A stretch of 64,000 nucleotides of DNA from positions 444,198-508,197 of the forward strand of contig MU001500.1 in assembly GCA_010093485.1 (NCBI GenBank), written 5' to 3'. This DNA comes from Karstenula rhodostoma CBS 690.94. Taxonomy: Eukaryota > Ascomycota > Dothideomycetes > Pleosporales > Didymosphaeriaceae. A model generated the notes under the pieces. It was not told the DNA's origin and made no database searches. It saw only the letters and a program-made list of their open reading frames with translations. Position numbers and translations under genes: made by a program. Below, piece after piece: positions 16,762-35,893 of the stretch (positions are counted from its first letter, which is position 1; each line of letters starts with the position of its first letter).

Positions 16762-16802
<41 letters not shown>

Positions 16803-17135: not shown

Positions 17136-18161
17136 TTAGTCCCCGAAGACGACGAACTCGGCGCCTGGGATGGCCACTTCTTCGTACTCGAAGACGACGA
17201 AGCTGCCCTCGACTTCGAAATCGTCCTCGTCATCCTCGTCGTCCTCGTCTTCTTCTTCGTCGGAGTCAGAGTCTTCAAGATCGCTGGCCTCTTCGTCGTC
17301 CATGCCGTGGCCGAGGGTAATAACCCTTCGGGTGCTGGTGGCGGCCGAAGTGCTCTGCTCTTCGTGTTCCTCCTCCTCATTGTCATCCTCGTCTTCGTTT
17401 GAAGATGAGTACTTGCCGCCAGCTTCGTATCGCGGCGACTTGCGCCAAAAGTAGAGCTGGTTTCGCCCTCCCTCGAAACTGGTCTCAGGGCAGAAGACAA
17501 CCGTGCATGCCTTCTTTTGGCGTGGCGACTGCATCATGTTCGGGTTGGCCTCCATGCTGTCCCAGTACATTTTCAGCGCCTCGGTGGCAGTCTTCATCTC
17601 GCCCGTAGCTTGACTCGAAGATCGACTGCTATAGGCTCGCTCGTGCAAGGTGAGGTCTTCTAGTCGGCCGAGCTCCTTGAGCAAGGCTAGCTTACCAGCG
17701 TACCATGCCTGCAGCGCAGGGCAATCTTGGTCGGCGGCCTCCCAGCGCTGCTTCACCAGCCCGCCGGCGGCTTCGAGCGCGACGGTGAGAGCTTTCATGT
17801 ATGTATTGTGTACCTCCACTATGCAGACGGGGCATCTCTCTGCCTTCTCTTTATGGGCCGGATGCAGCGCGTGTCCGCATACGCTGGCTTTGCCATTCTC
17901 TTCGCTCTTTTGGGACGCGCGCTCCGCGTAGTACGCGATGTCGGCGAGCGGAGTGTCGGAGAGGTAGCCTGAGTCGCGTTTGGCGAGCCAAGACTGGAAG
18001 TCGGCGTACTCGACGGCAGTGGGAAGCCGCCCCTGACTTTTGGGTGCGAGGGTCGAGGTTTGCGATTGGTACCGCCGATACTGCTTCTGTTCGCGTGGGG
18101 TGAGGATGAGGCTCGCGGGGAGTGTCGTGGTCGGCGTCTCGGAACGGGGGCGCGCGATCAT
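17136..18161 (-). CDS. CxHxLHP-CPxC family protein A, acidic tail
   Basis: 341 residues from the ATG at 18159-18161; an in-frame ATG at 18279-18281 would add 40 residues. It shares a layout with the proteins at 23855 and 34793. There is an N-terminal F-x-x-W helix (DFQSWLAKRD, ~55-64), then a Cys/His knuckle C95-G-H97-A-L-H-P with C110-P-V-C113, which could bind one zinc ion. A long helical region with conserved W and A/L spacing follows, then a basic stretch (RQKKACTVVF) and RKSPRYEAGGKY. It differs from its paralogues in an extremely acidic segment (about residues 265-320, runs of D/E) before the final hydrophobic block EVAIPGAEFVVFGD, which resembles the C-termini of the other two. I recognise no named family. 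Probably an intracellular scaffold or regulatory protein; function unknown. Confidence 0.8.
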   Translation of the reverse strand: MIARPRSETPTTTLPASLILTPREQKQYRRYQSQTSTLAPKSQGRLPTAVEYADFQSWLAKRDSGYLSDTPLADIAYYAERASQKSEENGKASVCGHALHPAHKEKAERCPVCIVEVHNTYMKALTVALEAAGGLVKQRWEAADQDCPALQAWYAGKLALLKELGRLEDLTLHERAYSSRSSSQATGEMKTATEALKMYWDSMEANPNMMQSPRQKKACTVVFCPETSFEGGRNQLYFWRKSPRYEAGGKYSSSNEDEDDNEEEEHEEQSTSAATSTRRVITLGHGMDDEEASDLEDSDSDEEEDEDDEDDEDDFEVEGSFVVFEYEEVAIPGAEFVVFGD

Positions 18162-19835
18162 GTTTGCGGTTGACTCGGCTTCGATTAGATTTGTGGTGGG
18201 CTGCACTGTTGTGCGCGCGAGAGGTTTTCTTTGTGTCGCGCAAAGGTGCAGGGTTGATTCGGTGCTCAGTCCGCGGTACACAAACCGTTGAGGGAAATGG
18301 AGTTCTGGTGTGGGTAGAGAGCCTGCCAGCTGCGAGTGGGGAAATTAAAGCGCTGGACTCGGACCACTTTATGACAGTCGTGCGGCTTAGGCAGGGAGAG
18401 TGAAAGTGAACGGTGCCCGCGCGGAATGGTGAATGCCATAGTATTGTTCTGTGCTTTCACTATGCGTGTCTCCTCTCTGCGGTCGAACAGAGATGGCAGA
18501 GGGTCGCGTGGGGTTGAATAGCGGACTTGAGGTCAAGTGGGCTGTCAGACTGATGCTGACGCGTTTGTCGTGTCGCGGCGTGTCAAGAGGCGATCGGGAG
18601 CGTGACTATTCACGCGTTTATTGTTCGCTTCCGAGGCAAGAGTGTGTTTGTAGGAGAAGCTGCGTTCTCCGAGCGTGGCAGTTCCGTGAAAGGAAGAGGT
18701 TTTGGTGGTTGTGGGGTACCTATTCTAGTGTCGGCGGCGGCGGGGAGTCACGGAGCGCCTCGGCTATATTCGTAGGGCCTCAAACGTTGGGCGTCGACGC
18801 CTTTATGTCGCAGGACAAGAGCAACGTGTTTGTTTCTTAGGTGGCATAGAGAGGCAGATGAGGATGCCTTAAGAATTGCTGAGGTGTGTTAACAAACGAT
18901 GATCAGTTGTTGTCGGCCGTTTCTAGATGCGTCTGCCTGACGTCACCATCGATTGAGCCTGCGAACGCCTCCAGGGCGCTGCATGCGGGCCGAGAATGCT
19001 TGCCCATTGTATGCGCAGAGGTGAAATTTCATTGTATATATTGAACGATGTTCTCGCGGGTGTGGATCGTAGAACACATATCGCCCTCTTCAGTGCACTA
19101 CTCAGCATAACAATCGGTTCCGGATGTCATGGAGCCGACATGGACGCTTCTGGTCACGTGACTGGGCATTATATGTACATCTGAGCAACTCTGGAGTACC
19201 TTGCAGATGCGTAGTTAAGAATGTAATCATCAGAGTGGGAAAATGGGGTTTCTTGTAAACTGGGGTACATATGCTTGTCTCGGTGATAAATAAATCACAC
19301 CTTTTCAAGTGCACTTTGTCACACGGCAAACGCATCGCTAGCCCACATGATGACAAAAAAGCCCTCCGTACCCAGACTCTCCATGGTGATAGAGTGAGCT
19401 GAACATCAAGCGCTAGAGTGTTACAAAGGTACGACGCATGATAATGCAGGGGCCGCGGACGGCACGGCACGTACGCTGGGGCCAGCATTAAGGGTGCTTG
19501 GCCCTCCCAGGAAGCAGGAAGTACGACGGGCGTCTAGCGCGTCGGGGGCGAGGGGATCAGACCTTTGAGTGGTCTTTTACAAGAGAAAACCTAAACGCGC
19601 TAAGCAACTATACGAGAAAGTACTTCTGGGAGGGTGTACGGCAGCAACCATCTTGCTCTTGCCATCTTTTCATCCTCAGAATGGAGGCGAGACGAGTGTC
19701 TGCGCCTCCCTCGCTAATCGCTAAGTGGCCCTACTTCTGGAAGATGATGCATCGTATCGCTGAACACCTCGCCTGATCGTGTTCGAAAAGAAGACGAGAG
19801 AGCGAGGTTACTGCTATTTGTACAGCCGAGGTATC

Positions 19836-20065
19836 CTGTGGTTGTAGCCCTATCTTTGTGCAGTGGGTCTTCCGGGGTAAGTATTATATAAAATATTTAG
19901 TATTAGTACCTTTCTATAATAAGTAGGTACTATTCTATAATAAGTAGGTACTATTCTATAATAAGAAGGTACTATTCTATAAGAAGAGTTAAATACGCTA
20001 CTATAGGGGCTTAGATCCTCCGAAGAAAATAGACCCACTGCACAAAGATAGGGCTGCAACCACAG
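19836..20065. mobile_element. Candidate MITE, 34-bp terminal inverted repeats
   Basis: The left end 19836-19869 begins CTGTGGTTGTAGCCCTATC. The right end 20032-20065 ends GGGCTGCAACCACAG and is its reverse complement at 33 of 34 positions. The 230-base element encodes nothing. Its AT-rich core carries about three and a half copies of a 21-base unit. A non-coding core between long, nearly perfect inverted ends is the hallmark of a miniature inverted-repeat element moved by a transposase in trans. I could not define a target-site duplication with confidence; at most TC is repeated at the borders. Confidence 0.8.
19914..19984. repeat. 21-bp AT-rich tandem repeat inside the element
   Basis: The unit CTATAATAAGTAGGTACTAT-T repeats at 19914, 19935 and 19956 with one substitution in the third copy, followed by a partial copy. 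Confidence 0.9.
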
Positions 20066-20589
20066 TCAACCTCCGGACTCCGTGCACACACTAAAGCGCC
20101 CACTAGTCCTGCATTCGCGATCACGAAGCATATCCTGGGTCCGGACCTGGCCCCAACCGCTCGTGCTCAACTCAATATGAAGCCCATCAGCAATATACTC
20201 CTCATGGTTGTTAATCAAGGGATACTGGATAGCATTGTCATGTCGCACTTCTCGTGGGATGAAGCTTCAAGCTACACAATGTTACGACTAACGAGTTTGG
20301 GTAAAAGGTCTAACCTCAACTACTAATAGCTCTTACGGGGAGTGCCGCTCGTTCCAGGGTTAGGGCGCCAGAAGGATTTAGTCTTCATGCACCTCAATCT
20401 GCCAAAAGCGACCCAGAAAACACTGCCCACATACGACGTGCACTCATTACCTCCACAGACCCACGTCCCGGTGTGTCCATTTCACCCCGCGCACCAGTCC
20501 CTTCCCTTCCTCTCTTTTTGACGAATACCGAGCTGTGTGGATCTTCCGTAGTTTCTTAGCCACCACCAGTCCCAGTCAGTGCTGCGGTT

Positions 20590-21764
20590 ATGTCGGGTCC
20601 CCAGGAAGTACGAAGAGTTCGCAGGATGGCAGCACCACATCTCGATATACGAGCAACGACCGCAAAGCCAAAATTTGCTCAACCTACCGATGTGATCGCA
20701 TTGACGTCAACCTTCACGCCGCCGTCATCATGTTTCGAAAATCTCCTTACCATGTTGCCACCCGCCAGCTTCATATGGCATAACGAACCGGTTCCTGTCG
20801 CGAACCTGACAGTCGCAGCATGTTACCCAACCGAGTTCCTGGAGTCCTACACATCGGTGGAAACCACGAACCCACTCGGTTCGACAATAGGCTCGTCAAT
20901 CGTCCCAGCAATGAGTCCATTCGCATGTCCAAAAAATTACTGCACCATGTTCGCAGAGGCGAGGAACTACATCGCTTGTTGCCCTTCGTAGGTTCATTCG
21001 ACACACATTCCCGCATGACCTAAGCGCTGACAGTTCCAAGATCATACCAATTCCATGCTCCAGACACGACCGTTGACACAGACCGACCTGCCTATGGCGG
21101 CACCTGTTACAGCGACCTTCCCGCCAAAACCAACGTCCCAGTCATCGGCTACGACGAAGAAGGCGACACAGCAAGTAAAGCCTTCAGCCAGAGCGCCAGC
21201 GGCGGACAGGCCTTCGCGCATCCAATCGACGGCTGGGCCATTACCTCCCCCACCATCGGCTGCCCGACGTCCTCAGCATCTCTCACCACCGACAAGTCTT
21301 CATCCTCCTCCTTCTCCTCCTCGTTGGCATCATCATCATCATCGCACAGCTCCGAAGCCGGCGCTGGTGTCAACACAAGCCCCACCCCGTCTGCTACTGC
21401 CTCCTCCGACGGTGTGTCCACCGGCGCAATCGTAGGCGCCTCGATTGGTGGCTGCGCCGCCCTCGCTCTCCTCGTCGGCCTCGTGTGGTTCCTCCTTGTG
21501 CGTCGCCGCAAGAATAGCACCATCCCCAAAGACGCGTACCAGATGCCCGACGACTTCGGTGGGCCCAAGACGTACTACAGGTCCGAAGGTGCCACTCAAT
21601 TCAACAGCCACGAAGTGAGCGCGTATCCGCCAGACAAGGTCGCGTGGAGGCCAAATGAAGGACATGGCGTGTTTGAGATGCTGGCCGATAGTGCGCAGGA
21701 GTTGCCGGCGGAGCAAGTGGGCAAGCCGGGGGATGCGAAAGTCATGGCGCTTCATGCGCGGTGA
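20590..21764 (+). CDS. Single-pass membrane protein with Ser-rich stalk
   Basis: Exons 20590-20987 and 21041-21764 (53-base intron, GTAGGT...CCAAG with a CTGAC branch site) total 1122 bases, 373 residues. The ectodomain has the layout of a common fungal surface family: TSTFTPPSSCF, then FIWHNEPVPVAN, CYP, YIACCPS across the splice, YGGTCY and AFAHPIDGW. A Ser/Thr-rich stalk follows, then one transmembrane helix at about residues 262-285 (GAIVGASIGGCAALALLVG) with RRRK on the inner side and an ~85-residue cytosolic tail. This resembles Mid2/Wsc-type wall sensors in design. No signal peptide is visible at the chosen ATG, so the true start may lie in an unseen upstream exon. Confidence 0.75.
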
Positions 21765-22799
21765 GGCGGGGTGGGGAAGGGTGGAGAGCGGTGTGCTGGG
21801 ACATGAGAGCATATCTTCTTGATTGTTCTGCTGGGCATGCTGCAAGTGAAGAGGATATGGCTTGCTTCGCGTCTTTCATTGTACGTTCTTTCAGCGCTTT
21901 TGGCAAATACCCTTGGTCTTCTTCTCGTGTAATTTTTAGGCGCCTCTTGTTTTCGTAATCATTTAGCGCTTTGCGGGTTTCTCCGTCAAACGCGTTGCTT
22001 CGCCCCTCGGTTGTACTGTGGGTCAACAAAGTTGGGTCGGTCTCCGATTTTGGTCATTCTATTTGCCGTAGTACAACACAAAATTGCCGTTACGATTGTT
22101 AATTACACATAAACGTTATCAATCTTACTCATCTACTTTGCAATCTTTTTTTACATGTCGATGTGTCTCACGACGGCGTAATGCGTGCACGAAGCGGCGT
22201 GCGTTCTTCGTTCTCGTAGATTTCTCGCTGCTAAGTAAGACAGAGCAGCGCCTTGGGATTGACAGTCACACATAACCCTAAGCGCTACCAGCCAAACTAG
22301 ATCATCCAATCTATAACTAATTTACCGATCGCGTTTGTGTTTAGAATATTAGCCTTTGCTCGTGTGTCCCTCTTGGCCGACAACAATTCCTACTTAATAT
22401 TCTCCGTATCCGCCTGCCATCTTCGAACTTAGATCCTCTCAGGAAATATTTCCCATCATGCGTACGGCTACTATATATATTTGGCAGTCATACTAGTTGA
22501 GCTATCCGGTCAAGCCTTTCTTACCTTGTTCCGCTCGCTGCCAACATGCTTCACGTTGGTCTCCAGCTTCGATCCTTCCGCTCGAAGATTGATACTGAGA
22601 TACCCTGGCCATACAAAAGAATTTCTATCTCGTAACTCCAACTGCACCGGCTCGAGAAAATGTTATCCAGCCGTCGCTATTCAGCCGATATGGCTTCCTA
22701 GACGAACATATATATACACACTCATCAACCTCTCAATCGCGTGTCTCCGAACTATCATCCGATATATATACGACCAAAGGCCTTCCTTATTCACCAGTC
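21765..22799. other. AT-rich intergenic region
   Basis: About 1 kb with low GC content (especially 22040-22480) and no convincing gene. A frame open from 22481 becomes protein-like only near 22800 and is described with the decayed gene that follows. Confidence 0.5.
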
Positions 22800-23369
22800 C
22801 CGCATCTTCCGCCACATACCACCTCCATCGCCAGCAGCAGTTAGATATCGAAGCCTTGACCCATGAGAGAGATACCTTGAGAATGCTGTCCCTCAAGAAG
22901 GAACTAGTAATTCGCGAGATGGCATGTTCTCGTCAACACATTACTGACTATGGTGGTTTACCGACTTCTCGGATATCATCCACGACTTCTCGGATATCAT
23001 CCACGACTTCTCGGATATCATCCACGACTTCTCGGATATCATCCACGACTTCTCCAGTGCAGTTGGTCGCGAGCTGGCCGCAATCACAATGTCTGACCGG
23101 CCGATGACAATCTACTTCAATTCCTACTCGAAAATTTCCGATCACCTGTTCCATTGTGAGGCTGAGGCCACTTACATCAAGAAGTTGGCGGCAGGGCCTT
23201 TTCCGGGTCCAAATAGATCTCGAACCGGTAGCAGAGAAGCGCCTCGACAAACGGAGCAGTCCGATGTCAGCTTCAACCTTACCCTCCACTCTCCACTATC
23301 CATCCTCTAGACGTGGACGAGGCCATGGCGGCGGAGGAGAAGGAACTCTTAGCACACGCGGCCGACGAA
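22800..23369 (+). pseudogene. Decayed gene with frame changes and a 21-bp repeat
   Basis: Coding-like sequence moves through all three frames. Frame 2 reads a charged helix (HRQQQLDIEALTHERDTLRM, ~22834-22893). At about 22950-22960 the sense moves to frame 1: FTDFSDIIHDFSD repeats, then SSAVGRELAAITMSDRPM and KISDHLFHCEAEATYIKK. Near 23200 it moves to frame 2 (VQIDLEPVAEKRLDKRSS). Near 23305 it moves to frame 3, ending VDEAMAAEEKELLAHAADEW-LQ-stop at 23367-23369. No introns of workable length join these pieces, so I read them as indels in a dead gene. It is a helical, coiled-coil-like protein of unknown family. An undetected set of unusual introns is the alternative. Confidence 0.55.
22963..23055. 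repeat. 21-bp tandem repeat, four copies
   Basis: GACTTCTCGGATATCATCCA-C occurs at 22963, 22984, 23005 and 23026 without change, plus a 9-base partial copy. In frame 1 it codes the heptad DFSDIIH. Identical copies indicate recent expansion. Confidence 0.95.
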
Positions 23370-23854
23370 TGGCTGCAATAGATGTTCTTGCAGTGAGACT
23401 TCTAGCTTCCTAAGCTTAGACTCTTTAAGTATGTCTAGCAGGCTTGGGTATTTGTCTAGCCCACTCACTAACTTAGATCTTGGTTTCGGTAACTTGATTA
23501 AGAAGTCCTCTAGTATCCAACATAAACCCGGAAACTCGACGCTTCACCATATAATTGCACCGAACTGGGCGAACAAAAGTGAAAGAAGCTCAGGCAATTC
23601 GGTGTTAATGGTGTGTTCGTCCCTTTTTCGACATCATGTGAACGATTCGAGTTGTGATAAAACAAAGTGGTTTGTGCGCGGGGTGTATATCATGTAAAAA
23701 TGATACGGGCATAGGGTTCCCCAAAGCATAAACAACTCCGCACACGGGTCAACTCTTACCAAAGTTTCAATTCTCAAGACTTGCCTTGCTCTCAAGACAC
23801 AGATCAACCGTACACAAGCTTTAACCGACAAAGCAAATTCGGGTGCTCACCACA
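23370..23854. other. Upstream region of family protein B
   Basis: 485 bases with no gene. It should hold the promoter of the gene at 23855. A GTGTATATCATG string near 23683 is the only TATA-like feature. Confidence 0.4.
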
Positions 23855-25012
23855 ATGGCTGGCCCAAAGAAGATGATTCACGCGGGGTTTCTTTGGTCGG
23901 ATAGTGACTGTGCTGGCTTCAACGCATGGCAAAAGAAGCAGACCGTAAAGGTCTCGCCCGTTAAGAAGTACATTTCGAATGCAGAGGAGTACCATCGTTA
24001 CGTGAGCCGTCCAGAATCCAAGCGATCGTTCAGCATCAGCAGCTTGACCGGGTATTTCCTGCGTCCGGCGGAGGCCAAGCAACCTGAGTGCAGCCACAAG
24101 CTTCACCCCGACGCCCCTGTCGAAGCGTTCTGCCCGGTGTGCCAGGTCGACCATTGCATTGCGTTCCTCGATGCAATCACTCAAGCGTGGGAGAACCTGG
24201 GTGGTCCTTTCCGCGAAGATTACGAGCCAAGGTCAACGCCCCATGGATATACCAATCTGAAGCTGGCCTGGCGTGCGGCTCGGCTCGAACTCTGGAACCT
24301 GGTGGCAAATCTTGAGAAGCAGGCCATTATTGAGAATCGCTTGGACTCATATGCTTCGCCTGCCGAACATTCCGATGAGCCCGACGATCCTCTCCCTACC
24401 ATTTATGACGCGCACGCCGCTCTTGCCAGGTATCGTATGACGTACAAGTACCCAGTCGTCGATGTTCCTCACCAGACCGAACAAGAGTTCCACACTCCGC
24501 ATCCTTCTCCGAAACAGAAGAAGGAGGTCCACTTCGACAAGGACCTTAAGAACGGCAGCACCCGAAAAAACGAATCCTTTGATCGAAAGCACCCCAGATA
24601 CATCCGAGGCCAGCACGCTGTTAAACCGGGTTCAGAGTTCGAGAATACCGCATGTACGGACGACACCGAATTCCTGCTCTCGCAAACAAAGATGTTCTTC
24701 ACAGAGGATCTCGGCTTCCATGACTACGCGGAGAAGCCCGAGCATTGGCCGGAGTTCGAAGGCATTGCTGGATGTCATCCTCGTTGGGAGGAGATTCTTC
24801 AGGGCCGTAAGACGTTCACCACATGGCGAAGCCACAGGAAGTATATCCGGTGGGCCCAAAATCTGAAGGCTAGCGGCACAGATGGAGTCGCTATCGTGAT
24901 GTACGGTGGCAAGATTGTGGACTTTGTGGTGTTGAGGGCGCCGAAGGAGAAGGAGCAGAACGTCGTGAAGCGGAGGGCGAGCTGGGTCTCGTTGAGCGAC
25001 TCTCAGTCTTAG
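23855..25012 (+). CDS. CxHxLHP-CPxC family protein B
   Basis: Single exon, 385 residues from the ATG at 23855 (MAGPKKMIHAGFL), which aligns with the start of paralogue C (MSGTKAKVIFDE). Features in order: F-x-x-W helix (GFNAWQKKQ, 21-29); knuckle C79-S-H81-K-L-H-P and C93-P-V-C96; a helical W/AR region (LAWRAARLELWNLV, ~150); a basic run leading to KKEVHF (~230); HPRYIRG; GIAGCHPRWEEILQG (~308); and a hydrophobic end GVAIVMYGGKIVDFVVLRAP. The C-x-H ... C-P-x-C spacing suggests a small zinc site. No membrane segment or signal peptide. The same elements recur in the same order at 17136 (A) and 34793 (C), so the three form a family. I cannot assign a function. Confidence 0.85.
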   Translation: MAGPKKMIHAGFLWSDSDCAGFNAWQKKQTVKVSPVKKYISNAEEYHRYVSRPESKRSFSISSLTGYFLRPAEAKQPECSHKLHPDAPVEAFCPVCQVDHCIAFLDAITQAWENLGGPFREDYEPRSTPHGYTNLKLAWRAARLELWNLVANLEKQAIIENRLDSYASPAEHSDEPDDPLPTIYDAHAALARYRMTYKYPVVDVPHQTEQEFHTPHPSPKQKKEVHFDKDLKNGSTRKNESFDRKHPRYIRGQHAVKPGSEFENTACTDDTEFLLSQTKMFFTEDLGFHDYAEKPEHWPEFEGIAGCHPRWEEILQGRKTFTTWRSHRKYIRWAQNLKASGTDGVAIVMYGGKIVDFVVLRAPKEKEQNVVKRRASWVSLSDSQS

Positions 25013-25365
25013 GAAGGACGTCTTGCGGTGCATGGAAGTGTCGATTCATTCCAATGCATCGCGTAGTACTCATGACTTTTATACATTACAATGATCTCTG
25101 TTGCCATTGCAAAGCTACACCAACACATACCGTGACATGTGCTTACCACTAGACTTAGACCCAATATCTAAGGTCAGAGTATCTGTGATCATTGCTAGAA
25201 CATGCTTTCTCAGTGCTGTAGAATCTCAAGGACAACATCAGAGTATGGCGAGTACGAGTGAATTAACAGCAGACTTTGGTACGCGTAACTACGAAAAACA
25301 AAGATCATCCATCATTTCTGTCTATCTCTTACAAGATCAGGGCCCGCTGTCCGACCTAGTTGTGC
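25013..25365. other. Convergent intergenic region
   Basis: 353 bases between the 3' ends of protein B (+) and the small secreted protein (-). No gene or repeat seen. Confidence 0.5.
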
Positions 25366-25790
25366 TTACTTATGTTCTGCAGCAAGAATGCGACATATTT
25401 CCAGAGATTCAGTATCAACATATACTTTCTCAAGCCTGCCACTGTCCCCCTCGCATACACCGATTTCAGACTGAACCACCAGGCATTCAGTGTCGGGCTG
25501 CGCGGCAGGCTCCGAAGACACGATGCACTCGGAGAACACCTCTGTCATACCGGAGAATTGAAGCGGCTGGGATGGCTCGTGTCAGTGTTGGGAGCGCAGA
25601 GTGGAGTGAGGTCAGGACGTACAGTACCATACTCTTGACGCAAGTGTTTCAAAGATCGAGCGAATACTGAGTTAGATGGCGATGATTCCACGTTGGATGG
25701 ACCAAGAAGGTGAATGGAGTTAATATCGAGCGGTTTGGAGAACGTGATCGCGGCGAGGGCGCTGGCGGTGAGAAAGTGTGTGGTCTTCAT
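25366..25790 (-). CDS. Small secreted cysteine-containing protein (two exons)
   Basis: Exon 1 is 25623-25790 and exon 2 is 25366-25566, separated by a 56-base intron (GTACGT...CCCAG with a CTGAC branch site) in phase 0. The total is 369 bases, 122 residues. Residues 1-18 are a classic secretion signal (MKTTHFLTASALAAITFS). The mature part of about 104 residues is acidic and has four cysteines, all in exon 2, enough for two disulfides. No family recognised. Small, secreted and cysteine-paired proteins in filamentous fungi include effectors and wall-associated proteins, but nothing here assigns a role. A second donor (GTAAGC) overlaps the stop codon, and a further splice there would change only the last few residues. 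Confidence 0.6.
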
Positions 25791-26798
25791 ATTGGACGTG
25801 AGAGAGCTGTTCTGATATAACGGAATGATTATTGCTGTAGCGGTTGAGCTGTTGTAGAAAGCGACTGTCTGTTCTAGTAACTTATGGTGGACTATGGGAT
25901 TTTATAGATCCAGGAAGATCTGTGCATCGTAGTGTCTCGAGGGAGAGTCTGCTCTCCATCCTCATTATTTTTGGTACTCTCTAATCATAGATTTGTCTAT
26001 ATTGGGATCTCACAGGCAAGGTCAGTCGTTTCGAAACGAATTGCCGCCATCATGCGGCGGAACGTTCTCAGTGATAGGCACTGGGCGACTGGGCTGTGAA
26101 GCTGGTCTCATATTATCTTCCACGCGCTGATGTATGTATTTTAAGGGTTTGAACCGCAAGCTTTGCATATCCTCTACGGCTTCTGGAAGCATCTCAAATG
26201 CTACCGTAATTACACGAGATTCTTTTTATCATCCACGTAATCTGTAAAATCGACAAGCGACACATTGACCGATATTGTGCAGAAGTTCCCAGATATTGTC
26301 AGCAGTCATGCTGTTCGAACAGTCCTAGCACAGGTGGTCAGAAAATGCGGCGCAACTGACATCAATCCGCAATTGTCTGCTGAGATGCAGGTTTACATGA
26401 AACTCGATCTCATCTGCATGTCTTGGTCATCTTTTGTCCGTGCTGACTCTATTTTCGCGCAACACGCGACACGGCGCGTAGCGGTGCATCTTTTCACGTT
26501 CTCGAGCCCACGCGGAGCCGCTCGGAACTTCCTAGCTCCATGCACTCTACCAAAGGAGATAAAACCTGCGTATACTGTTCCTGACGTCGGATAGCGCGTG
26601 AAGGAGTCATGGTTTGGCTAGCTCGCAATCAGTAGGTCGGAGTGCGATTGGGAGCGAGCCGCGCTGCTGCCTGCAGATCCTCGGAACTCGGGCTGGAATT
26701 ATCAGATCTTCGGAGTTATCAGATCATCAGATAAAGAGCCGACCTTCCTAATTTCTTCCTGAATCCCATCGCTATCACTTGTACCCTTACCGTCAACG
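25791..26798. other. Divergent intergenic region
   Basis: 1 kb between the secreted-protein gene (-) and the MFS transporter (+). AT-rich around 25900-26240, with no supportable gene. It presumably contains both promoters. Confidence 0.5.
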
Positions 26799-28391
26799 AT
26801 GGAAACTTCAAAGTCGAATGCGCGTATTAGCTCGTCTGTCGATGCAATAACAGCTCTGCCACCAGCAGCCGAAGTCGAACTCACCACCATCCGGGAGGAG
26901 ACTCAACAGCCAATTCCAGACAAACTCGACGATCCATATCTTGTCGCATTCTCTCCGAACGATGCTTCAAACCCCAAGAACTGGCATTCGCGCCGCAAGT
27001 GGGCTGTCACCGATGTGCTGTCCGCCACAGGGTTCAATCGCATCATGGTCTCCACTATCATGGCGCCAGCGCTGCCTTTGATCGCGCAGGAATTCTCGAT
27101 GAATTCCACAGAGACGATGATGTCTTTCTCAAGCTACGTCCTTGCCACTGCCCTCGGTCCGTTGATCATCGGCCCATTATCAGAAGTATATGGACGCTCG
27201 CCTGTGCTACACGCGAGCAACATCTGGTTCCTCGTCTTCAACATAGCATGTGGGTTTGCAAACAACAAGCACGCGCTTATCGCAGCGAGGGTTCTTGCTG
27301 GGCTTGGTGCAAGTAGCATATATGCGTTGAGAGGCGGAGTGCTCGGAGACATGTTCACAGCCAAACAGCGTGGAAAGGCGATTGGTGTGTACCAATTGTT
27401 TCCACTTCTGGGTAAGCATTAACGCTGCAAGCATGTATTGGAAAGTTGCTTATTCTGTTATTCAACAGGCTCTGCGGTCGGTCCAATAATTGGAGGCTTC
27501 ATGGCAGGTCGAACTACGTGGAGATGGATGTTCTGGTCGACATCCGCATTCCAAGCCGTTATGGTCCTTGTCTCCTTCACCGTCTACCGCGAAACATACG
27601 CTCCACTCATTCTTAAGCGCCGCGCTGAACGGCTACGAAAGACGACGGGCGACGATCGATACTACACCGCACTTGAACGCATGCAAGAGAAAAAATCAGT
27701 GCGCCAAGTAATAACCCGGGCTCTGTCGCGACCACTTCGACTCATGATCCACCATCCCGTAATACAAGTTGCAAGTCTAATCGAGGCTTTCTACTACGGC
27801 ATTCTGTATCTCTTGCTTGCGAGCTTTGCAGATCTTTGGACGCAACACTACCACGCCAGTACGGAGATGAGCGGACTGCACTACATAGCTGTCGCCGGAG
27901 GCGAGCTCGCAGGCAGTCAACTCGGAGGCTACGTACTCGATGCTTTCTACCGCCGCCTGCGAGCTCGAAAGGCTGATTCCACACCGGACCCGGAGAATCG
28001 GCTACCACTCATCTTCCCCGGTCAACTAATCGGCTTCGTGGGCCTCCTCATATATGGCTGGACGGCGCAATATCACGTCCATTGGATTGCTGTAGACGTT
28101 GGAATATTCGTTGCATGCTTCGGTATGCAAATGTCAGGCATGGCCACGCATGCGTATATTATAGATGCGTATGCAGAACATACCAGTAGCGCGCAGTCTG
28201 CAACGCAATTCCTGGAAAGTCTAGCTGCGTTTTCGTTCCCACTGTTCGCACCGGTTCTGTACAGGACGTTAGGCTATGGTTGGGGAAACACTTTGTTGGT
28301 CGCCATTGGGTTGTTCCCCGGGTTCCCGCTGGTGTATGCGCTGTGGAAGTGCGGTCTGCGATGGCGGACGAACAGTCCATCCACCGAGTAG
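26799..28391 (+). CDS. MFS drug:H+ antiporter (DHA1-like), two exons
   Basis: Exons 26799-27411 and 27469-28391 (57-base intron GTAAGC...CAACAG) total 1536 bases, 511 residues. The cytosolic N-terminus ends in NPKNW, a signature just before TM1 in fungal DHA1 multidrug carriers. GPLSEVYGRSPVL fits the loop 2-3 MFS motif, and RVLAGLGASSIYALRGGVLG with DMFTAKQRGKAIGVY marks TM4-TM5. The central loop is charged (KRRAERLRKTTGDD). Later helices include GQLIGFVGLLIYGW and a final LLVAIGLFPGFPLVYALW. Expected in the plasma membrane exporting small toxic compounds by proton exchange; the substrate is unknown. The neighbours do not form a biosynthetic cluster. Confidence 0.88.
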
Positions 28392-28536
28392 AGCTCGCGC
28401 ATGAGGTCTAGACCCTAGGAATTACAGACGCCGAGGAAGAAGGTTAGTTGGTCTCGTATGGAAGGGTTCGGTTTCCTCTTTGTTCATCCAACTCCCCGTA
28501 GTCTTTGTACACCTTGTTCATTATTTGTGGCAGGTT

Positions 28537-29832
28537 TCAAGCGTCGGAGGAAGTGGATGTTGTAGATCGGAAGACCCAAGAGCCCGCAGCCGCGCCGGTT
28601 CCTGCGTTGTAGCGTCCGGTGTTTGGGTTGCTTGCGGGAGCTGCGAAGACGATCCAATTCCCAGAAAAATCATTCTCGAAGCCCGGGTTGATGACGGCAT
28701 CAGTGCGGCTACAAGCCGTCGCACTGGGTGGTGGAGTTGAGGCGGGGATGGTGATTGTTAGCGGATCTGGTCGTATGGTCGCAAACTCCGTGGTAGTTGA
28801 AATTGAGACCGAGATCTCTGTTGTAGTTGTAGGTATTTGTTCGGTCGTGGTTGAAAACTCCGTCGTGGTTGAGAGTTCCGTCGCAATAGATAGATACCTC
28901 AGTCGTGGTTGAGAGCTCCGTCGCAACTGACACCTCCATTGTTGTTGAGGTCTCTGTTGCAGTTGAATGATCTGTTACAGTCGAGATCTGCGTAGTGGTT
29001 GAGTACTCTGTCGTAGCTGAAGTCTCTGTGGAAATATAAATTTGAGTCAAAGTTGAAACTTCGGTCGCAGTTGAAGTTGAGTGCTCTGTTGTAGTTGGGA
29101 TTGTCACAGTAGTCTACTCTACTTCTCCAGGAAGACCAATGGTGGTAGGGACTGTCACCGTCGTGGTTCCCCCAGACAAAGTAATCGTAGTAGCTCTTGT
29201 TATGATCTGTGTTATTATCGAAGTCGTGAGCGTGAAAGTGTGGGCAGAGCATGTTTCTTGAGATCGGACAGGAACGGTGCTGCTAGCAGGTCGCGACGAA
29301 GCTACGGAGCTGAGAGTCGTGCGGGCAGGAGACGAAACGGCGTAGCCGCTGCAGGAGCCATATTTGATTTAGCAGACGTTGGCGGCACAGTAGCCTTTGT
29401 TCTTGTCACACCATCTATTCTCAATCGTTAGCTCAATTGCATCAGCTTATGGAAACTGTGGACTTACCCAGTCTTAGAACAGCAATCACCGAACTCACTG
29501 TCTTGACAAGTTTCCCCCCCAAAGACAGACCCGCATCGGCCATTTTGAGAAATGGTTTGTTTTGGTATACCACAGGTGCCGCACTGGAGCTGACAGCCGT
29601 ATCCGCAAAAAGCCGTTGTGGAACCGCTGGAGCAGGTCAGAATCTTTGACTCAACCGTCAACGGTCGAAGCAGACATACTACTAGCCACTCGTAGAGCAG
29701 CAATTCCCAAATTTAGACCCTACACATGTCAAATTACCGTAGCGCGTTCCACAGCGACCGGCTGTTGATACTTTGTGGGCCTCTGCAATACCGCAGATGG
29801 AGAGCAAAAACGACTCCACTCACGCATTTCAT
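28537..29832 (-). pseudogene. Broken secreted CBM18 (chitin-binding) mucin-like protein
   Basis: From the ATG at 29830-29832 the minus strand reads a signal peptide, two hevein-type (CBM18) Cys domains, a Ser/Thr-rich stalk and an NPGFE-type domain, but not in one frame. Lesions: an extra base in the T-run at 29806-29810; two adjacent TAG codons at 29679-29684 inside the first hevein domain; TAA at 29369-29371, where CAA would read through; TAG at 29114-29116; and a four-base TATC duplication near 28887-28895 that shifts frame. A 52-base intron (29416-29467) in the second hevein domain still has good GT/AG sites and rejoins GDCCSKTG with WCDKNKGYCAANVC. The parent was probably a secreted, wall-bound chitin-binding protein. 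Two stops fit C-to-T changes, as in repeat-induced point mutation, but this is inference. Confidence 0.7.
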
Positions 29833-31285
29833 TTTGTAAGCGTGGAACAAAACACAACGACCCCACACGAGGCTTCAGTTTCACTGCCGTGCTTTATAAA
29901 TCATTCTGCCATCAGTCTGGACAATGTTTGTTTCGAGTGCCAATGCTCTCGATCCCTACGGAATGGTGTAGGACCTGGAGAGAGGCTTGAATACGATCCG
30001 GTTATCCCAGAAGAGGCATGGCTGTCTGCCCGCTAGCCGCCTTTGTTAACAAAACCTCGCATTCGATCCTCTGTCGTCGGTCGATCCGATTAGCACGAAG
30101 ATCATTCCAAGGTCCTCCGATTTCATTTCGACAGTACCAGCGCGCGACAAGTCAAACGTATCGCCAGGGGCGTACTTAGCTAGCACTCTTATTATTGTAT
30201 CAAGTCGAGCTCACCAAGATATCAGATATCGCGCGGTGGTTCCAGGAGCCCCGTGAGGCTGAAGTGTGGCGTGGGCTGGGTGCGGCTAGCGCATCGCAAA
30301 AGCACAACTATGGCTGTGGGCGCAACGCCCATGTATTGGGCTGAGCTCAGCCGAATATCCTTTTCTTGATATGACTTACACAGTGAATAGTTTACTGTAG
30401 GCTGGTCTCGAGCTGACTTGGGTAGTTGAGCAGTGCCGCCGCTATGCAGGGCGCAAAGTGGCAAAGTGTCCATAGCCGCATTTGCAAAGCTTTTTAGATG
30501 GAGATGACTCGAACGAAGCTGAACGAGCTTTCTTCGCGACCTTTCGCATATTGGCACTGAAGATCAAATATCACCAAGGCATGAAAACTCCACGACACAT
30601 GTGGTAAGAAGAAGAGGCGGGAACAAAATTCTCTAGGCTGCTTCGGGTTAGACGTGGGATCGGTGGAATATGGATCTCCGCCCGAGCGACATCCGATCTT
30701 CTTCCTGTCATCAACCATTGGGGCGATCGCGAAAGTCCAGCATCTATCAGCATATAACACGTAACGGAAGGTTGGCTTCCGATGCGTTGGTATCTCTGTT
30801 GAAATCGCTGCGGCTCCTGCCGGTACCAACACTCAATCCAGAAGCCGTCAACTCACTTTCAACTACTACACGCACAAGTCCTGTCAGATGGCGTTCGCTA
30901 CATTGTGCATACGTTATGTCGCTTTACATTCATATGCCCGAGATTTTTTACTCCGTCATATCAGCGACACCCATGTTGCCCATGTGCACAAGGCAAGGCA
31001 ATGCCGGTGCACCGTTCTTCAGAGTACGCCGACTTAGGAACTTTAAGCCGTTGCACGTAGATCTGGGTGTTCTAGACCGCCGCAAGCCGCCAACTACTAA
31101 AAAGACCCACACACATCCATATCGCCTGTGTTTAGAGTTCCGTTACATCCGCACAGAACTGCGATCGACCAACTTTGCCTGCAGCCTAATTGTGTCGGAC
31201 ATTTCAACGGCGCAGACTTCCTGCGTGGATTGTGCACATTGGGACACATTATCTAGTTCTTCTCCTTATCGTTGATAAGGTTGTT
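29833..31285. other. Gene-poor region
   Basis: 1.45 kb with scattered open frames (30670-31275 + the longest) that show no domain, no consistent coding bias and no splice sites joining them. No RNA gene or repeat seen. Confidence 0.45.
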
Positions 31286-32024
31286 CTAAGGGATCGGCTG
31301 TTCTAGTGTTGCGATTAGACGCATGGCATATTGCCGTGTATGCTCGTTTGGGACTCCGCCTGCTTTCCCCCACGCGCCGCTTTGCTTCTCGGATGCAGAT
31401 ACAATTAGACTCTCAGTCTGCTTGGTGAACACCTCTTCTACGATATCAAAAGGGAAAGTGCTTTGTTGGAACACTCTCGCATAGACGACATGCCGCATTG
31501 TCGTATTGCCGTACTCGCGAAGTATTGCCGTATAGCCTTCGCAGTATCCCTCGCATTGTCTTTAACCATACGGTGTTGTTTTGGTGCGCTCAGCATGCGG
31601 TCGAATGACCGATATGCCATACAGTGCATTGCAAAATTTCAGGATGGCTTGGAACAGTCCACATCTCTCGGGGAGCCGCAGATGACCGGGTTCTTCAGAT
31701 ATTCTCAATACATTGAGGGAATCTGATCGAAGATCATTGAAAGAGCGGAGAAATTTTGCACGGGAATCGCCTAAGGATTGTCCCGTCGCTTCGATTCCGA
31801 TCTGAAAGTTTTCACCCGCTGGCATAGCTGCATTTGCGGGGTATGCCGGGATCTACACTTATTCTACTACACCAAGTAAGTAAACCGATAGACATTGGTT
31901 GTTGTGATAAGCACTGAGACCAGCCAAGGTCGACCACGAGGGGCAGCGTGCTTGAAATCTGGCCGCCTGCCCTAAGCAGAAGGTCAAGAACCTCTTCCTC
32001 TAGGGAGATAAGCCCTTCAAGCAT
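31286..32024 (-). pseudogene. Possible relic or unresolved multi-exon gene
   Basis: Protein-like segments follow one another on the minus strand in different frames. They are MLEGLISLEEEVLDLLLRAG (from 32024), then MPAGENFQIGIEATGQSLGD running to about 31562 in another frame, and finally FDIVEEVFTKQTESLIVSAS ending at a stop at 31286. Composition and helical periodicity look like real protein and unlike the surrounding sequence. I found no convincing GT-AG pairs linking all parts. It may be a decayed gene or one with introns I could not place. No family recognised. Confidence 0.35.
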
Positions 32025-32611
32025 TCGCCAATAAACACTTGCATCGGACCACTTCGGTGATTGTTACAGGACCTTCATAAATGTCGCCGCTTTGGGCAGG
32101 TGATGCCTTAAGCGACGGTACCTGGCTCTACCCACCAATGACGAAGAACCTTCCCCCGGCAGATTCATGATGCCAAGCCACTTGCTGCATATCTCAAACC
32201 ACAACCCATGATATCCCAGAGAGGCTTACATTGACTATCCTGCACTTGGCAGTAGCATGGCACAAGGACACAGTGCGAAGTCAACGGGGTCGACATGCCA
32301 AGGATCGATGGGTAATCCATCCCTCGACATGCCTATTCGAACTTTGATGCTCCGACAAACATGTTTCCAATGCCATAGAACACAATTTAAATGGATGTCG
32401 GACCCGCATACACCAATCAAAATCCAGATAGGACACATATACAAACCACGACACTTCCATTGTCGTGAATTACCAGAAGCAGACGATGGCACAAACTCGG
32501 GTATAAAGACACGATACTTCCACATGCTTTGTTGTTCATCAAAGTACTCAACAGCTTCTTTGATAAGTTCATTCACTACTTCAGAGGTCTCACAGTCCGC
32601 AGTCGTTCAAC
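32025..32611. promoter_or_regulatory. Putative promoter of the M35 protease gene
   Basis: CCAAT at 32413-32417 and TATAAA at 32502-32507, about 110 bases before the ATG, have ordinary spacing for a fungal promoter. CACGACA (32447-32453) and its complement TGTCGTG (32461-32467) form a 7-bp inverted repeat between them that could be a dimeric regulator site; this is only a guess from symmetry. Confidence 0.4.
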
Positions 32612-33708
32612 ATGAAGGTTATCTCATTCGCTGCCCTTCTGGCTTTGGCCAACGCCTCCGTCGTCACCAAGCGTGCCTCGCCTCTTGATGTCAAGCTTGA
32701 GTTGACCGGCAACACGAATGTTAAGGCTGCGATCACCAACACCGGCTCCGAGGCTATCAAGGTCTTCAAGACTGGTTCCATCTTCGGATAGCACGCCACT
32801 GAGAAAGCTCAGGTCTTCCAAGGCAGTATGCAGACCATTCTCACAAGATATAACGGCTTTGATATTCTAACACAATCTCAGGCTCCAAGGTCGATTTCGC
32901 TGGTATCAAGGTCCGCGTCACGACTGAGAACATCCCCGAGGATTCTTTCCAGGTCATCGCGCCGGGTCAGACTGTTGAGACCTCGTTCGATGTAGCTGAA
33001 CTGCACGATCTCAGCTCGGGCGGTGCTTTCTCCACCGGCGCGGTTGAGTACTCTAGCAACACTGTCACCGCCAACATCGACGGTGCCGAGGCCGAGAAAG
33101 TCCGCCGTGACTTCGTGAAGCGATCTGCCGTGCAGGCCGACTGCACTGGCAGCAAAAGGACCTCCACTGTCAACGCTCTTGCCAACTGTGCCACCCTCGC
33201 CCGGGCTGCTTCTTCTGCTGCCGCCTCCAATACCGCCAAGGTCCAGGAGTACTTCAAGTCGACCACTTCCAGCACCATCTCCACCCTTCAGAGCGTCTTC
33301 AACAGTGTCGCCACCGAGTGCGGTTCTTCCACCTCTGGTGTCTCCAAGACCTACTGCACTGATGTCTACGGCAACGGCTGCGCTTCAAACGTCTTGGCTT
33401 ACACCCTACCGTCCGGAAGCTACATCGTCAACTGCCCCTTGTACTTCAGCGCTCTTCCCGCTCTCACTAAGACTTGCCACGCTCAAGACCAGGGTAAGCT
33501 GAATCCGAACGTGACCTCATATTTCTCCCCGCTAACTGAAATTCTAGCCACCACCACTCTCCACGAGGTCACCCATCTTAGCCAGATCAAGGGTACCCGG
33601 GACTTGGGCTACGGCTACGCTGCCGCTACCCGTCTTTCTACCTCCTCTGCGCTTGCCAATGCTGACAGCTACGCTCTGTTCGCCAACGCTATTTACGCTG
33701 GATGCTAA
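32612..33708 (+). pseudogene. Deuterolysin (M35 metalloprotease) with one in-frame TAG
   Basis: Exons 32612-32825, 32882-33493 and 33548-33708 (introns of 56 and 54 bases, good borders) total 987 bases, 329 codons, in one frame, close to the family's usual ~350. There is a signal peptide (MKVISFAALLALANASV), a propeptide with a KR at the junction near residue 150, and the catalytic HEVTH (about 281-285) with GTRDLGYG supplying the third zinc ligand Asp. Cysteines are placed as in deuterolysins. The only defect is TAG at 32789-32791, codon 60, in the propeptide. Everything downstream is intact, so the lesion is recent, a population variant, or a sequencing error. As written, the product would be a 59-residue peptide. 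Known relatives are secreted neutral proteases. Confidence 0.8.
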
Positions 33709-34792
33709 TTCCATCATACGCGGGGTTGTCGGAGTAGAATGGGTAGTATGGTTGACGAAGCAATGAATTCAAATGATGATTATATAGTTGTATGAAGGTT
33801 TGGATATCTAGTACATCATTTCACATCATTCATACTCAACTGCGTGCATTGCACTTCTGAAAATATGTGTTATGAGCGGCGGATTCCGAAGGAGGAGTCG
33901 AGGGATTGCGACTCTGGTAGCACTGTTGCAGGAGAGCCACTGTGATCTGTATTGTGTCAAAACAGCATGTTTACGATAAGGATGTGATCTGTTTCATAGA
34001 CACGATTATACGCTTATCTAGAGAATTACATGGGTTCTTGAACCCTCCGCGCTTGTTCCTGCACGCCAACACGTCCATCCTTACCTAGGGAGATGGTCAC
34101 GTGATCTTGAGGCAACCCTGAAACCATCGGACTGATGTTGAAAGTGCAATCCTCTGTTATCAACTCCGCATCCCACCTGATCCTATCTAAGGTCTCCTAG
34201 TACGCAGATGGTATGGTGTTACACTCACTCGAGAGAATGATCTGACAGATGAACGCCCCATTTGCACCATAACGCCTCAGATTTAGACCCCTGGTCATCG
34301 TATTGAAAAGAGTTAAGCTCTGCATCATCTTGTGAGTTGATGAGAGGAACGATTGAAGACACCTCTGAGTGTTGGACTAGGGCCTTAAAGGTAGAGTGTC
34401 CATACAGTGAAACAAATGTCTGATCGTCAAACTCAAGATGGTATGCGTTTTGCTAGGGGTATATGAATTTGAGGTTTAGTCATTTCGGATGTCGAGGCAC
34501 TGACAGGGAGCAGTAAGCCAAGCAAAGAGGCAACTGTTGGACTTGTTGCTCTCAAGTGTGAGCTTTGATACGCTCAGTCAAAGACGAGAATTAATATAGG
34601 CGGATGATCACGTCGTAGTTTATAATGGGACTGTAATACACTTTGTTTCATACTCTATATTGTCAGTTGTCCAAATCGTTTCCACGATTATAGAGAATTT
34701 TGGGTTTATCTAATGTCAATGATCTTCCGTACCATGTCATCTCAGGTTCCATCATGTTCCCACTGCCTCTCTAGGCAAACATCAAGAAACAT
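33709..34792. other. Convergent intergenic region
   Basis: 1.08 kb, AT-rich, between the 3' ends of the M35 gene (+) and family protein C (-). No gene, repeat or RNA feature seen. Confidence 0.5.
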
Positions 34793-35893
34793 CTACAACT
34801 GATTCAGAGATGTCCAGCCCATCGTCCACCATAACAACGGATCTGCTCCTTCCTCTGCACTTCCTTCGACGGGCGCAAATTCGTAACCCGTGACCACGCC
34901 CATATTATTGCGATGCACCACTAAACCGTCAGTCTGTTCGTCCATCTCGCCGTCTTCCTCTGATTTCATGAGATCTCGGATTTGGGGCCACAATGGATGC
35001 AGTCCAACCATTCCTTCCTGCGTCACGATAGGAGTGGCCAGGCAGGGACCAGACTTGACCACGTACATCTTCAACTGCTGAATCGACGCCATATCCGATT
35101 TGTAGCCGCTAGTGTTGATGTATGCCGATTCACTCTTCGGCGCGTACTTGCCTGGGACGTAGTGGGAGCCGTTGCGATCGAACATGTACGACGCTCTTGG
35201 CTCGGCACACTCTTCGACATGGGTCGCAAAAGTGACGCGCTTCTTCTTTTTGTCTTTCGATGGCTTGATAGCAGATACATCTATGCCATTATGTGCGTCC
35301 ATGATAATAGCTTGGTACTTCGTGTTGGCGTAAGCAAATTCAACGGCGGAGGCTGAAGTGTTGATACGCTCTTTCAAGGCCGTCCTAGGCCACGACGTTG
35401 CTTCGTTGCTTTGCAACCACTTAGCCTCGAGCTCCGCAAGTTTCTCATGATGCAGAACAGCATGGATGAGAATGAGGCGCGCATGCCGCCATCCACTCCG
35501 AGCTGCGTGGTACCTTTCCCTTGCGGTTGCTACGTCTTGAAGGTATTTGGTGTCGGTAGCTTGCTTTTGTGCATGCTCCATAGCCGATACGAGTAGTTCC
35601 TGGAACCCCAGACAGATTTTGATCTCGCAGTGCGGACACCTGAAGCTTCCCTTGTTCACTGGATGTAACATGTGACCACAACCCGGGGCCGGGAGGTTCC
35701 AGCATGCACTCGGCTGTTCTAGAGGTGCGGGAAGAACCACCTCTCCGTCACACCATCTCATGAACGCATGGAGCTCAAAGCCACTGAAGATATAGCCAAT
35801 CCGATCATGATTGTGCTTTTTCTCCGCTTGCCAGGACTTGAAAAGGGCTAATTCCGTTTCGTCGAAGATGACTTTCGCTTTGGTGCCGGACAT
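34793..35893 (-). CDS. CxHxLHP-CPxC family protein C
   Basis: 366 residues from the ATG at 35891-35893 (MSGTKAKVIF), preferred over an in-frame ATG 123 bases upstream because it aligns with the start of paralogue B. In order: F-x-x-W helix (LFKSWQAEKK, 18-26); knuckle C72-G-H74-M-L-H-P with C86-P-H-C89; a helical region with GWRHARLILIH; a Lys run leading to KKKKRVTFATHVEE, a canonical R-V-x-F string; GSHYVPGKY; GMVGLHPLWPQIRDL, matching GIAGCHPRWEEIL of B; and a hydrophobic end (MGVVTGYEFAPV). Longer spacers occur between modules than in A. The protein lacks signal or membrane segments. Function unknown. Confidence 0.85.
   Translation of the reverse strand: MSGTKAKVIFDETELALFKSWQAEKKHNHDRIGYIFSGFELHAFMRWCDGEVVLPAPLEQPSACWNLPAPGCGHMLHPVNKGSFRCPHCEIKICLGFQELLVSAMEHAQKQATDTKYLQDVATARERYHAARSGWRHARLILIHAVLHHEKLAELEAKWLQSNEATSWPRTALKERINTSASAVEFAYANTKYQAIIMDAHNGIDVSAIKPSKDKKKKRVTFATHVEECAEPRASYMFDRNGSHYVPGKYAPKSESAYINTSGYKSDMASIQQLKMYVVKSGPCLATPIVTQEGMVGLHPLWPQIRDLMKSEEDGEMDEQTDGLVVHRNNMGVVTGYEFAPVEGSAEEGADPLLWWTMGWTSLNQL

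What the first reader, a model, noticed from the sequence alone, without database searches (positions are those of the whole stretch)
17136..35893. Three dispersed paralogues of an apparently undescribed C-x-H-x-L-H-P / C-P-x-C protein family
Proteins at 17136-18161 (-), 23855-25012 (+) and 34793-35893 (-) share an ordered set of landmarks: an F-x-x-W helix, C-x-H-x-L-H-P followed 8-11 residues later by C-P-x-C, a helical W/AR region, a basic run leading to a V-x-F string, a P/H-R/H-Y-x-x-G motif, and a hydrophobic C-terminal block. B and C also share G-x-x-G-x-H-P-x-W. The Cys/His spacing would make a compact zinc site unlike standard C2H2, RING or zinc-ribbon spacing. They are on both strands and not adjacent, so this is not a simple tandem array. 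I do not recognise the family.
Basis: partly seen in the sequence, partly recalled or inferred. Interest (0 to 1): 0.78.

Follow-up and report, generated by a model that had tools for sequence, protein, structure and literature searches.

The report
Undescribed fungal zinc-site protein family
Three genes in this fungal window belong to a real, unnamed protein family with at least six copies in the genome; each copy joins a small zinc-type site to a short conserved stretch resembling the tag by which proteins recruit the phosphatase PP1, a role that is inferred and untested.

Summary
A (17136-18161 -), B (23855-25012 +) and C (34793-35959 -; start moved upstream) are homologous: profile-profile E 9e-19, 4e-16 and 6e-21. 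Pfam and NCBIfam gave no convincing match. 'Three dispersed' is an undercount: the genome holds at least three more members, two adjacent on contig C20 and one on C16. Relatives were found in Paraphaeosphaeria, other Didymosphaeriaceae and Byssothecium, named only as hypothetical; each of the four subfamilies with several sequences is one clade, so these are old paralogues. The Cys/His spacing is not foreign to RING: C-x-H-x-L-H...C-P-x-C resembles the second half of RING-H2 without the first. The feature shared by all six, in variants, is a stretch basic-VxF-x14-FxRxxxxYxxG. In A it is the best conserved region and predicted disordered; in five of six paralogue lines at least some members fit the PP1-docking RVxF consensus, but A in this window and P0044 do not. 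Best explanation: adaptors that recruit phosphatase PP1, with the zinc/helical part for targeting. The family is established; zinc binding is likely; PP1 recruitment is inferred (0.35).

The parts
17136..18161 (-). Gene A, 341 aa (P0001). Predicted helices 22-35, 49-62 and 71-82; zinc-type motif C95-x-H97...C110-P-x-C113; predicted helices 111-205; VxF...FxRxxxxYxxGG stretch 220-252 in predicted disorder; acidic tail.
   Evidence: 15 of the 16 relatives start at or near the same Met
23855..25012 (+). Gene B, 385 aa (P0002). Zinc-type motif C79-x-H81...C93-P-x-C96; KKEVHF...FDRKHPRYIRG stretch 223-252; C-terminal part 257-385 shared with C.
34793..35959 (-). N-terminus MGSALS is myristoylation-like; zinc-type motif CGHMLHP...CPHC; KKRVTF...FDRNGSHYVPGKY stretch; C-terminal part shared with B.
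17823..17879 (-). CGHALHP...CPVC of A
24089..24142 (+). CSHKLHP...CPVC of B
35627..35680 (-). CGHMLHP...CPHC of C
17409..17450 (-). FWRKSPRYEAGGKY, 3' half of the conserved stretch in A
24578..24616 (+). FDRKHPRYIRGQH, 3' half of the conserved stretch in B
35144..35182 (-). FDRNGSHYVPGKY, 3' half of the conserved stretch in C

Best explanation
A, B and C are old paralogues of one fungal family of two-part adaptor proteins. Shown: homology, the conserved C-x-H...C-x-x-C set, predicted helices around it in A and in the same order in B, and a downstream stretch basic-VxF-x14-FxRxxxxYxxG that is predicted disordered in A. Inferred from conservation: the four Cys/His residues bind one zinc ion that pins the helical domain. 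Inferred from motif resemblance: the stretch docks on protein phosphatase 1 (the fungal Glc7 type), with V and F in the RVxF groove and the downstream FxR/Y residues as a second contact, so that each paralogue brings PP1 to its own partners. Paralogue-specific ends would set the location: a myristoylation-like MGxxxS start in C, an NLS-like basic run in the C16 member, an acidic tail in A.
For: Homology: and the tree. One search examined 41 proteins (P0003 and P0013 dropped as duplicates; P0044 not included): 40 have F.R....[YW] (the miss, P0026, is a fragment) and all 40 have [VI]xF within 32 residues upstream. The V-to-F distance is 17 in 26 and 18 in 4 of the 30 A, B, C and C20a proteins with the stretch; the C16 group has a longer gap. 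The pattern [RK]x?[VI][^P][FW] is met by 30 of the 40 (A 7 of 17, B 7 of 7, C 5 of 5, C16 10 of 10, C20a 1 of 1), against 2.5-11% of composition shuffles of the same 32 residues. In A the stretch has mean pairwise identity 0.77, above the helical and zinc regions (0.55-0.69), between flanks at 0.29 and 0.32; its 10-residue pLDDT means are 41-53. In the C16 group it is also the highest region, narrowly (0.82 against 0.80 for the zinc site). The consensus, its presence in 90% of PP1 regulators and the disorder of most PP1-binding regions are stated in PMC10731240 (passages only), which also gives TVTW as the site of human PNUTS, so the TVVF form of A here is tolerable. PMC6506691 (passages only) lists fungal Glc7 subunits for which RVxF is key. 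A PP1-type catalytic subunit is encoded in this genome (60 residues compared).
Against: RVxF is short and common, and the members inherit it from one ancestor, so its presence in many is conservation of one event and not independent evidence; the shuffles ignore this relatedness. Ten of 17 A proteins, the one in this window among them, lack the canonical pattern; so does the sixth member P0044 (RARF). No SILK or MyPhoNE pattern (recalled) was found. In B (0.55) the stretch is less conserved than the zinc, N-terminal and helical regions, and in C (0.56) it is about average. A profile of the stretch finds no PP1 regulator in the PDB at E 10, although such short stretches rarely would. Low pLDDT may only reflect the shallow alignments used (17 and 18 sequences). 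The basic run could be only an NLS.
Confidence: 0.35

Rival explanations
1. The same two-part family, but the VxF-FxR-YxxG stretch binds some other conserved partner, or folds on it, and has nothing to do with PP1. The basic run may be an NLS. This is an open class of partners, which is why its summed odds are not below those of the one named mechanism.
For: The second half (FxRxxxxYxxG) is as invariant as VxF in the 8-row alignment and has no counterpart in the PP1 motifs I know (recalled). The C16 member has an NLS-like run next to it. P0044 and 10 of 17 A proteins lack the canonical RVxF pattern.
Against: VxF stays in A proteins that lost the adjacent basic residue, so the stretch is more than an NLS; in five of six paralogue lines at least some members have the canonical form.
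Confidence: 0.4
2. The zinc motif is the remnant of a RING-H2 finger, and the proteins are degenerate or one-zinc RING ubiquitin ligases.
For: Seven of nine PDB profile matches are RING-type ligase chains (6f98, HRD1, RNF165, RBX2), E 0.05 to 6; the three shown align on CGHxLH...CPxC. zf-rbx1 is a weak Pfam match for 1 of 18 members (E 0.83).
Against: All are below significance. In the alignments the RING's first Cys pair and its sixth ligand fall on positions without a Cys in the family consensus. P0043 has lost the His of LHP, and the C16 group uses CxxC...CxxC.
Confidence: 0.1
3. The zinc module binds nucleic acid or chromatin, and the family are transcription or RNA regulators.
For: Basic runs; sub-threshold zinc-ribbon matches (FORGETTER1 ribbon in 2 of 18 members, best E 0.0097; TFIIB ribbon in 1, E 0.16).
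Against: The matches are weak and differ between members; A ends in a long acidic tail. A conserved basic face near the zinc residues was not tested.
Confidence: 0.15

Closest known systems
PP1 regulatory subunits with an RVxF motif (PNUTS; fungal Ref2, Reg1, Gac1, Bud14, Bni4 and others, as listed in PMC6506691 and PMC10731240)
   Same: RVxF-type site after a basic run in predicted disorder, with further conserved positions downstream; paralogues with different ends.
   Different: No homology to any of them appeared in the searches made; the FxRxxxxYxxG half is not a PP1 motif that I know (recalled); a zinc-type motif in front; binding untested.
RING-H2 fingers (HRD1, RNF165, RBX2)
   Same: C-x-H-x-L-H and C-P-x-C in the order and about the spacing of the second half of a RING-H2.
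   Different: The first Cys pair and the sixth ligand are missing; the His of LHP is lost in P0043; matches are below significance.
Zinc ribbons / Zn_ribbon_FGT1_2 (PF23548)
   Same: Four Cys/His residues in two pairs; the C16 group is CxxC...CxxC.
   Different: Two of 18 members match, best E 0.0097; C scores 14.7 bits against a cut-off of 27; the first pair is C-x-H in A, B, C and both C20 members.

Membership tests
RVxF-type PP1 regulator | [K/R]-X0-1-[V/I/L]-X-[F/W] motif | tested here: inconclusive
   Met by 30 of the 40 proteins with the stretch, of 41 examined. In the window B and C fit, A (KKACTVVF) does not; P0044 does not
RVxF-type PP1 regulator | motif lies in disordered sequence | tested here: inconclusive
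   A: pLDDT under 50 at 206-223, 233-237 and 239-341; B: under 50 at 199-227 and 229-244; the alignments are shallow, so low confidence is weak evidence of disorder
RVxF-type PP1 regulator | secondary PP1 motifs (SILK, MyPhoNE; phi-phi and Arg sites) | tested here: inconclusive
   SILK and MyPhoNE patterns (recalled, from no call) absent; phi-phi and Arg sites were not tested
RVxF-type PP1 regulator | binds PP1c through V and F | not testable with these tools
   no complex prediction or binding assay on hand
RING-H2 finger | eight ligands in two cross-braced zinc sites | tested here: not met
   only the C-x-H / C-P-x-C half is conserved
RING-H2 finger | significant match to a RING model or chain | tested here: not met
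   best PDB E 0.052; zf-rbx1 E 0.83 in 1 of 18
Zn_ribbon_FGT1_2 (PF23548) | score over the curated cut-off | tested here: not met
   C: 14.7 bits against 27, 14.6 for the full-length C

The most novel reading that the evidence does not exclude
A family of PP1-targeting subunits, so far found by name only in Pleosporales, that carries its own extended docking code (basic-VxF-x14-FxRxxxxYxxG) attached to a one-zinc helical domain resembling half of a RING-H2, and that diverged into at least six copies, each sending PP1 to a different place, one of them possibly to membranes through N-myristoylation.
Probability: 0.25. Interest if true: 0.65.

Novelty: new variant of a known kind. Interest (0 to 1): 0.45.

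Why it matters
It turns three unnamed proteins into a defined family with a testable function. If the stretch docks on PP1, these fungi have a set of PP1 regulators with no named counterpart in the searches made here, and an extended docking motif to add to the PP1 code. If it does not, it is still a conserved linear element waiting for a partner.

Tried and rejected
Known-family searches. Pfam: A, B and C have nothing over a cut-off; 18 members of A6 have no match better than E 0.0025 and 10 of the C16 group none better than E 0.81 (cut-offs are not shown there); P0045, P0010, P0044, P0043 and P0011 have nothing over a cut-off. Twelve A relatives (P0028-P0039) were not scanned. NCBIfam, seven proteins, nothing over a cut-off; that library is made for bacteria and archaea. 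The matches of A to NOA36, Rpc31, BUD22 and the like lie on its acidic tail.

Recent local duplication as the origin of the A-B-C cluster: rejected, because A, B, C and the C16 group are each one supported clade (98/95 to 100/100), with about 23% identity of A to B and C. The order of branching between the groups is weak, P0010 and P0044 sit on long branches, and the program warns that the B-C join may be false.

Degenerate extra copies inside the window: none seen; tblastn of 43 proteins gave 12 matches outside the three genes, all E 0.13 or more.

Genome matches dismissed as chance: C24 (L005) and C16:1473815 (L012) lie in unrelated or broken frames, C2 (L031) in another kind of ORF. C5 (L011, on the acidic tail of A) and C3 (L030) were not read.

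Literature, listings only unless said: RVxF with PP1, filamentous fungi and regulatory subunit, 2 papers (passages of PMC6506691 read); Karstenula rhodostoma with genome, 13 papers, 10 listed; RVxF with PP1, disorder and Arg motif, 3 papers (passages of PMC10731240 read); RVxF with consensus and the like, 17 papers, 10 listed; RVxF with Dothideomycetes, 0; three of four terms on orphan genes, Pleosporales, zinc fingers and uncharacterized families, 5 papers. None is about this family by title or start of abstract. That the family is not in print rests on these searches of an open-access library only.

Failed script: the BLAST half failed (shell environment); its motif table was superseded.
Full report
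What is there. The window lies on contig C9 of a 44.3 Mb assembly in 29 contigs. A protein of Karstenula rhodostoma CBS 690.94 (P0013) is identical over 285 residues to an ORF of this assembly on C16, so the genome is that species or very close to it: Didymosphaeriaceae, Pleosporales. The three ORFs are open and carry the landmarks. Relatives support the starts of A and B and move that of C to 35959.

Is it more than chance? Yes. C.H.LHP and F.R....Y..G.{1,2}[YHF] each occur three times in six frames of the window, only in these genes. BLASTP of the pairs gives E 2e-7, 3e-11 and 3e-6. With orthologues, hhalign gives A-B 99.1% (E 9e-19), A-C 98.7% (E 4e-16) and B-C 99.35% (E 6e-21). A aligns to the others only up to about residue 257, B and C nearly to their ends.

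How many? B used as query finds a member on C20 (P0010, 648 aa; E 2e-5; B-group profile 96.1%). C finds a weak match on C16 (E 0.15), whose protein P0011 has the same stretch with different zinc ligands; the C16 profile matches the C profile at 86.6% (E 4.5e-6), P0010 at 90.95% (E 1.1e-6) and the A profile only at 27.1% (E 7e-4), in each case over the stretch and its surroundings and not over the zinc site. The stretch of P0010 as query finds C16 at E 7.9e-5 and a second C20 gene, P0044, at E 0.0018, 0.8 kb from P0010 on the same strand. P0044 reads CSHTLHP...CPPC, KRARF and FARSHWRYAAGRW. So there are at least six members: three within 19 kb on C9, two adjacent on C20, one on C16. The search scores only its best candidates, so this is a lower bound; membership of C16 and P0044 rests on weaker evidence than that of the other four.

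Who else has it? B: 6 relatives. C: 5, and the C16 group: 10 with P0013 (in which only the 7997 candidates sharing most words were scored). A: 16. No separate relatives of P0010 or P0044 were recovered; P0044 was never used as a query there. Named sources are Paraphaeosphaeria sporulosa and P. minitans, Paraconiothyrium brasiliense, Didymosphaeria variabile, Kalmusia, Pseudopithomyces chartarum, Karstenula and Byssothecium circinans (the family placement of the genera other than Karstenula is recalled); every named entry is called hypothetical or uncharacterized. The search needs shared exact words, so the true range may be wider. P. sporulosa entries fall in A, B, C and C16 (P0028, P0005, P0018, P0021). 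A tree of 37 proteins makes A, B, C and the C16 group each one clade (support 98/95, 100/100, 100/100 and 100/100); five fragments (P0008, P0009, P0018, P0026, P0027) were left out of it. The paralogues are therefore older than the split of Karstenula and Paraphaeosphaeria (for C this rests on P0018, 65% identical to C, outside the tree).

The zinc-type site. C-x-H...C-x-x-C is intact in 17 of 17 A, 5 of 7 B (the two others begin within or after it), 4 of 6 C (P0027 is a fragment; P0018 begins inside the site and reads RFPHC) and 1 of 1 C20a, and in P0044. The C16 group has CxxC...CxxC in 10 of 10. The His of LHP is lost in P0043, so four residues, C, H, C and C, are the likely ligands; zinc itself is an inference. 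A profile of 18 members has RING-type E3 ligase chains as its best PDB matches (E 0.052 for 6f98), aligned as CgHaLH...CPvC on CGHILH...CPIC. The first half of the RING is missing, so this is a resemblance and not membership.

The conserved stretch. Across an 8-row alignment of the groups the invariant columns are one Cys and V, F, R, F, R, Y, G of the stretch. The distance from V to the F of FxR is 17 (26 proteins) or 18 (4, all C) in the A, B, C and C20a proteins that have it. In the C16 group the script's figure of 16 refers to a second VxF; RRVSF lies 22 before that F (sequence). P0044 has Ala for V at distance 17. In A the stretch is the best conserved region, 0.77, against 0.29 and 0.32 for its flanks, and it is predicted disordered. 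In the C16 group it is narrowly the highest, 0.82; in B and C, 0.55 and 0.56, it does not stand out.

What it may do. The first half fits the RVxF consensus in 30 of 40 proteins. Three of the four early-branching A proteins have it in full (P0040, P0041, P0043) and one does not (P0042, QCITF); of the 13 crown A proteins 9 keep VxF without the basic residue next to it. PMC10731240 (passages) gives the consensus, its presence in 90% of PP1 regulators, and TVTW as the site in human PNUTS. PMC6506691 (passages) lists fungal Glc7 subunits for which RVxF is key. A PP1-type catalytic subunit is in this genome (60 residues, best PDB PP1 match E 2.3e-23). I therefore propose PP1 adaptors at 0.35; the open class of other partners is given 0.4. 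No binding was or could be tested here.

Paralogue ends. C and its three relatives with a complete N-terminus (P0045, P0014, P0019, P0026) begin MGxxxS, 4 of 4, which resembles an N-myristoylation signal (rule recalled; D or F at position 3 in two of them is unfavourable). Nine of 10 C16 proteins have an NLS-like basic run before the RRVxF (P0025 lacks it). A ends in an acidic tail.

Verdict.

Noticed in passing
window 9360-15386 (-): A 2008-aa uninterrupted ORF with DEAD, Helicase_C and Sec63 Brl domains, each in two stretches, a Brr2/Slh1-type RNA helicase (the name is inferred from its domains).
   Followed up: partly
window 26799-28391 (+): MFS transporter split over two ORFs (26799-27422 and 27501-28391), most likely one gene with an intron between them.
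   Followed up: partly
window 44491-46499 (+): SLAC1-type anion channel over two ORFs: the start of the profile matches the end of the first (weakly) and the rest the second, again most likely an intron.
   Followed up: partly
window 36690-38129 (+): Carboxylesterase gene next to C; an FMN oxidoreductase at 40671-41777 and a GDSL lipase at 43161-44033 follow.
   Followed up: no
window 22962-23054: 4.4 perfect copies of a 21-base unit (CGACTTCTCGGATATCATCCA) about 0.8 kb upstream of gene B; not studied.
   Followed up: no
window 16762-16802: TTGC repeated 10 times without a mismatch, about 0.3 kb downstream of gene A.
   Followed up: no
window 2554-4878 (-), 5955-7562 (+), 52106-54697 (-), 62430-63956 (-): Four long ORFs (774, 535, 863 and 508 aa) without any Pfam match at E 0.001, scanned as single ORFs.
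   Followed up: no
L036 5912-6634 (-): A 240-aa ORF near the C20 pair with its own Cys/His-rich stretch (CPYCKR...CVLC); by eye not a member of this family.
   Followed up: no
L008 922-1872 (C16 member) against P0013: The annotated K. rhodostoma protein P0013 starts 31 residues later and runs 74 residues past the end of this ORF, so the C16 gene probably has an intron near its 3' end.
   Followed up: no
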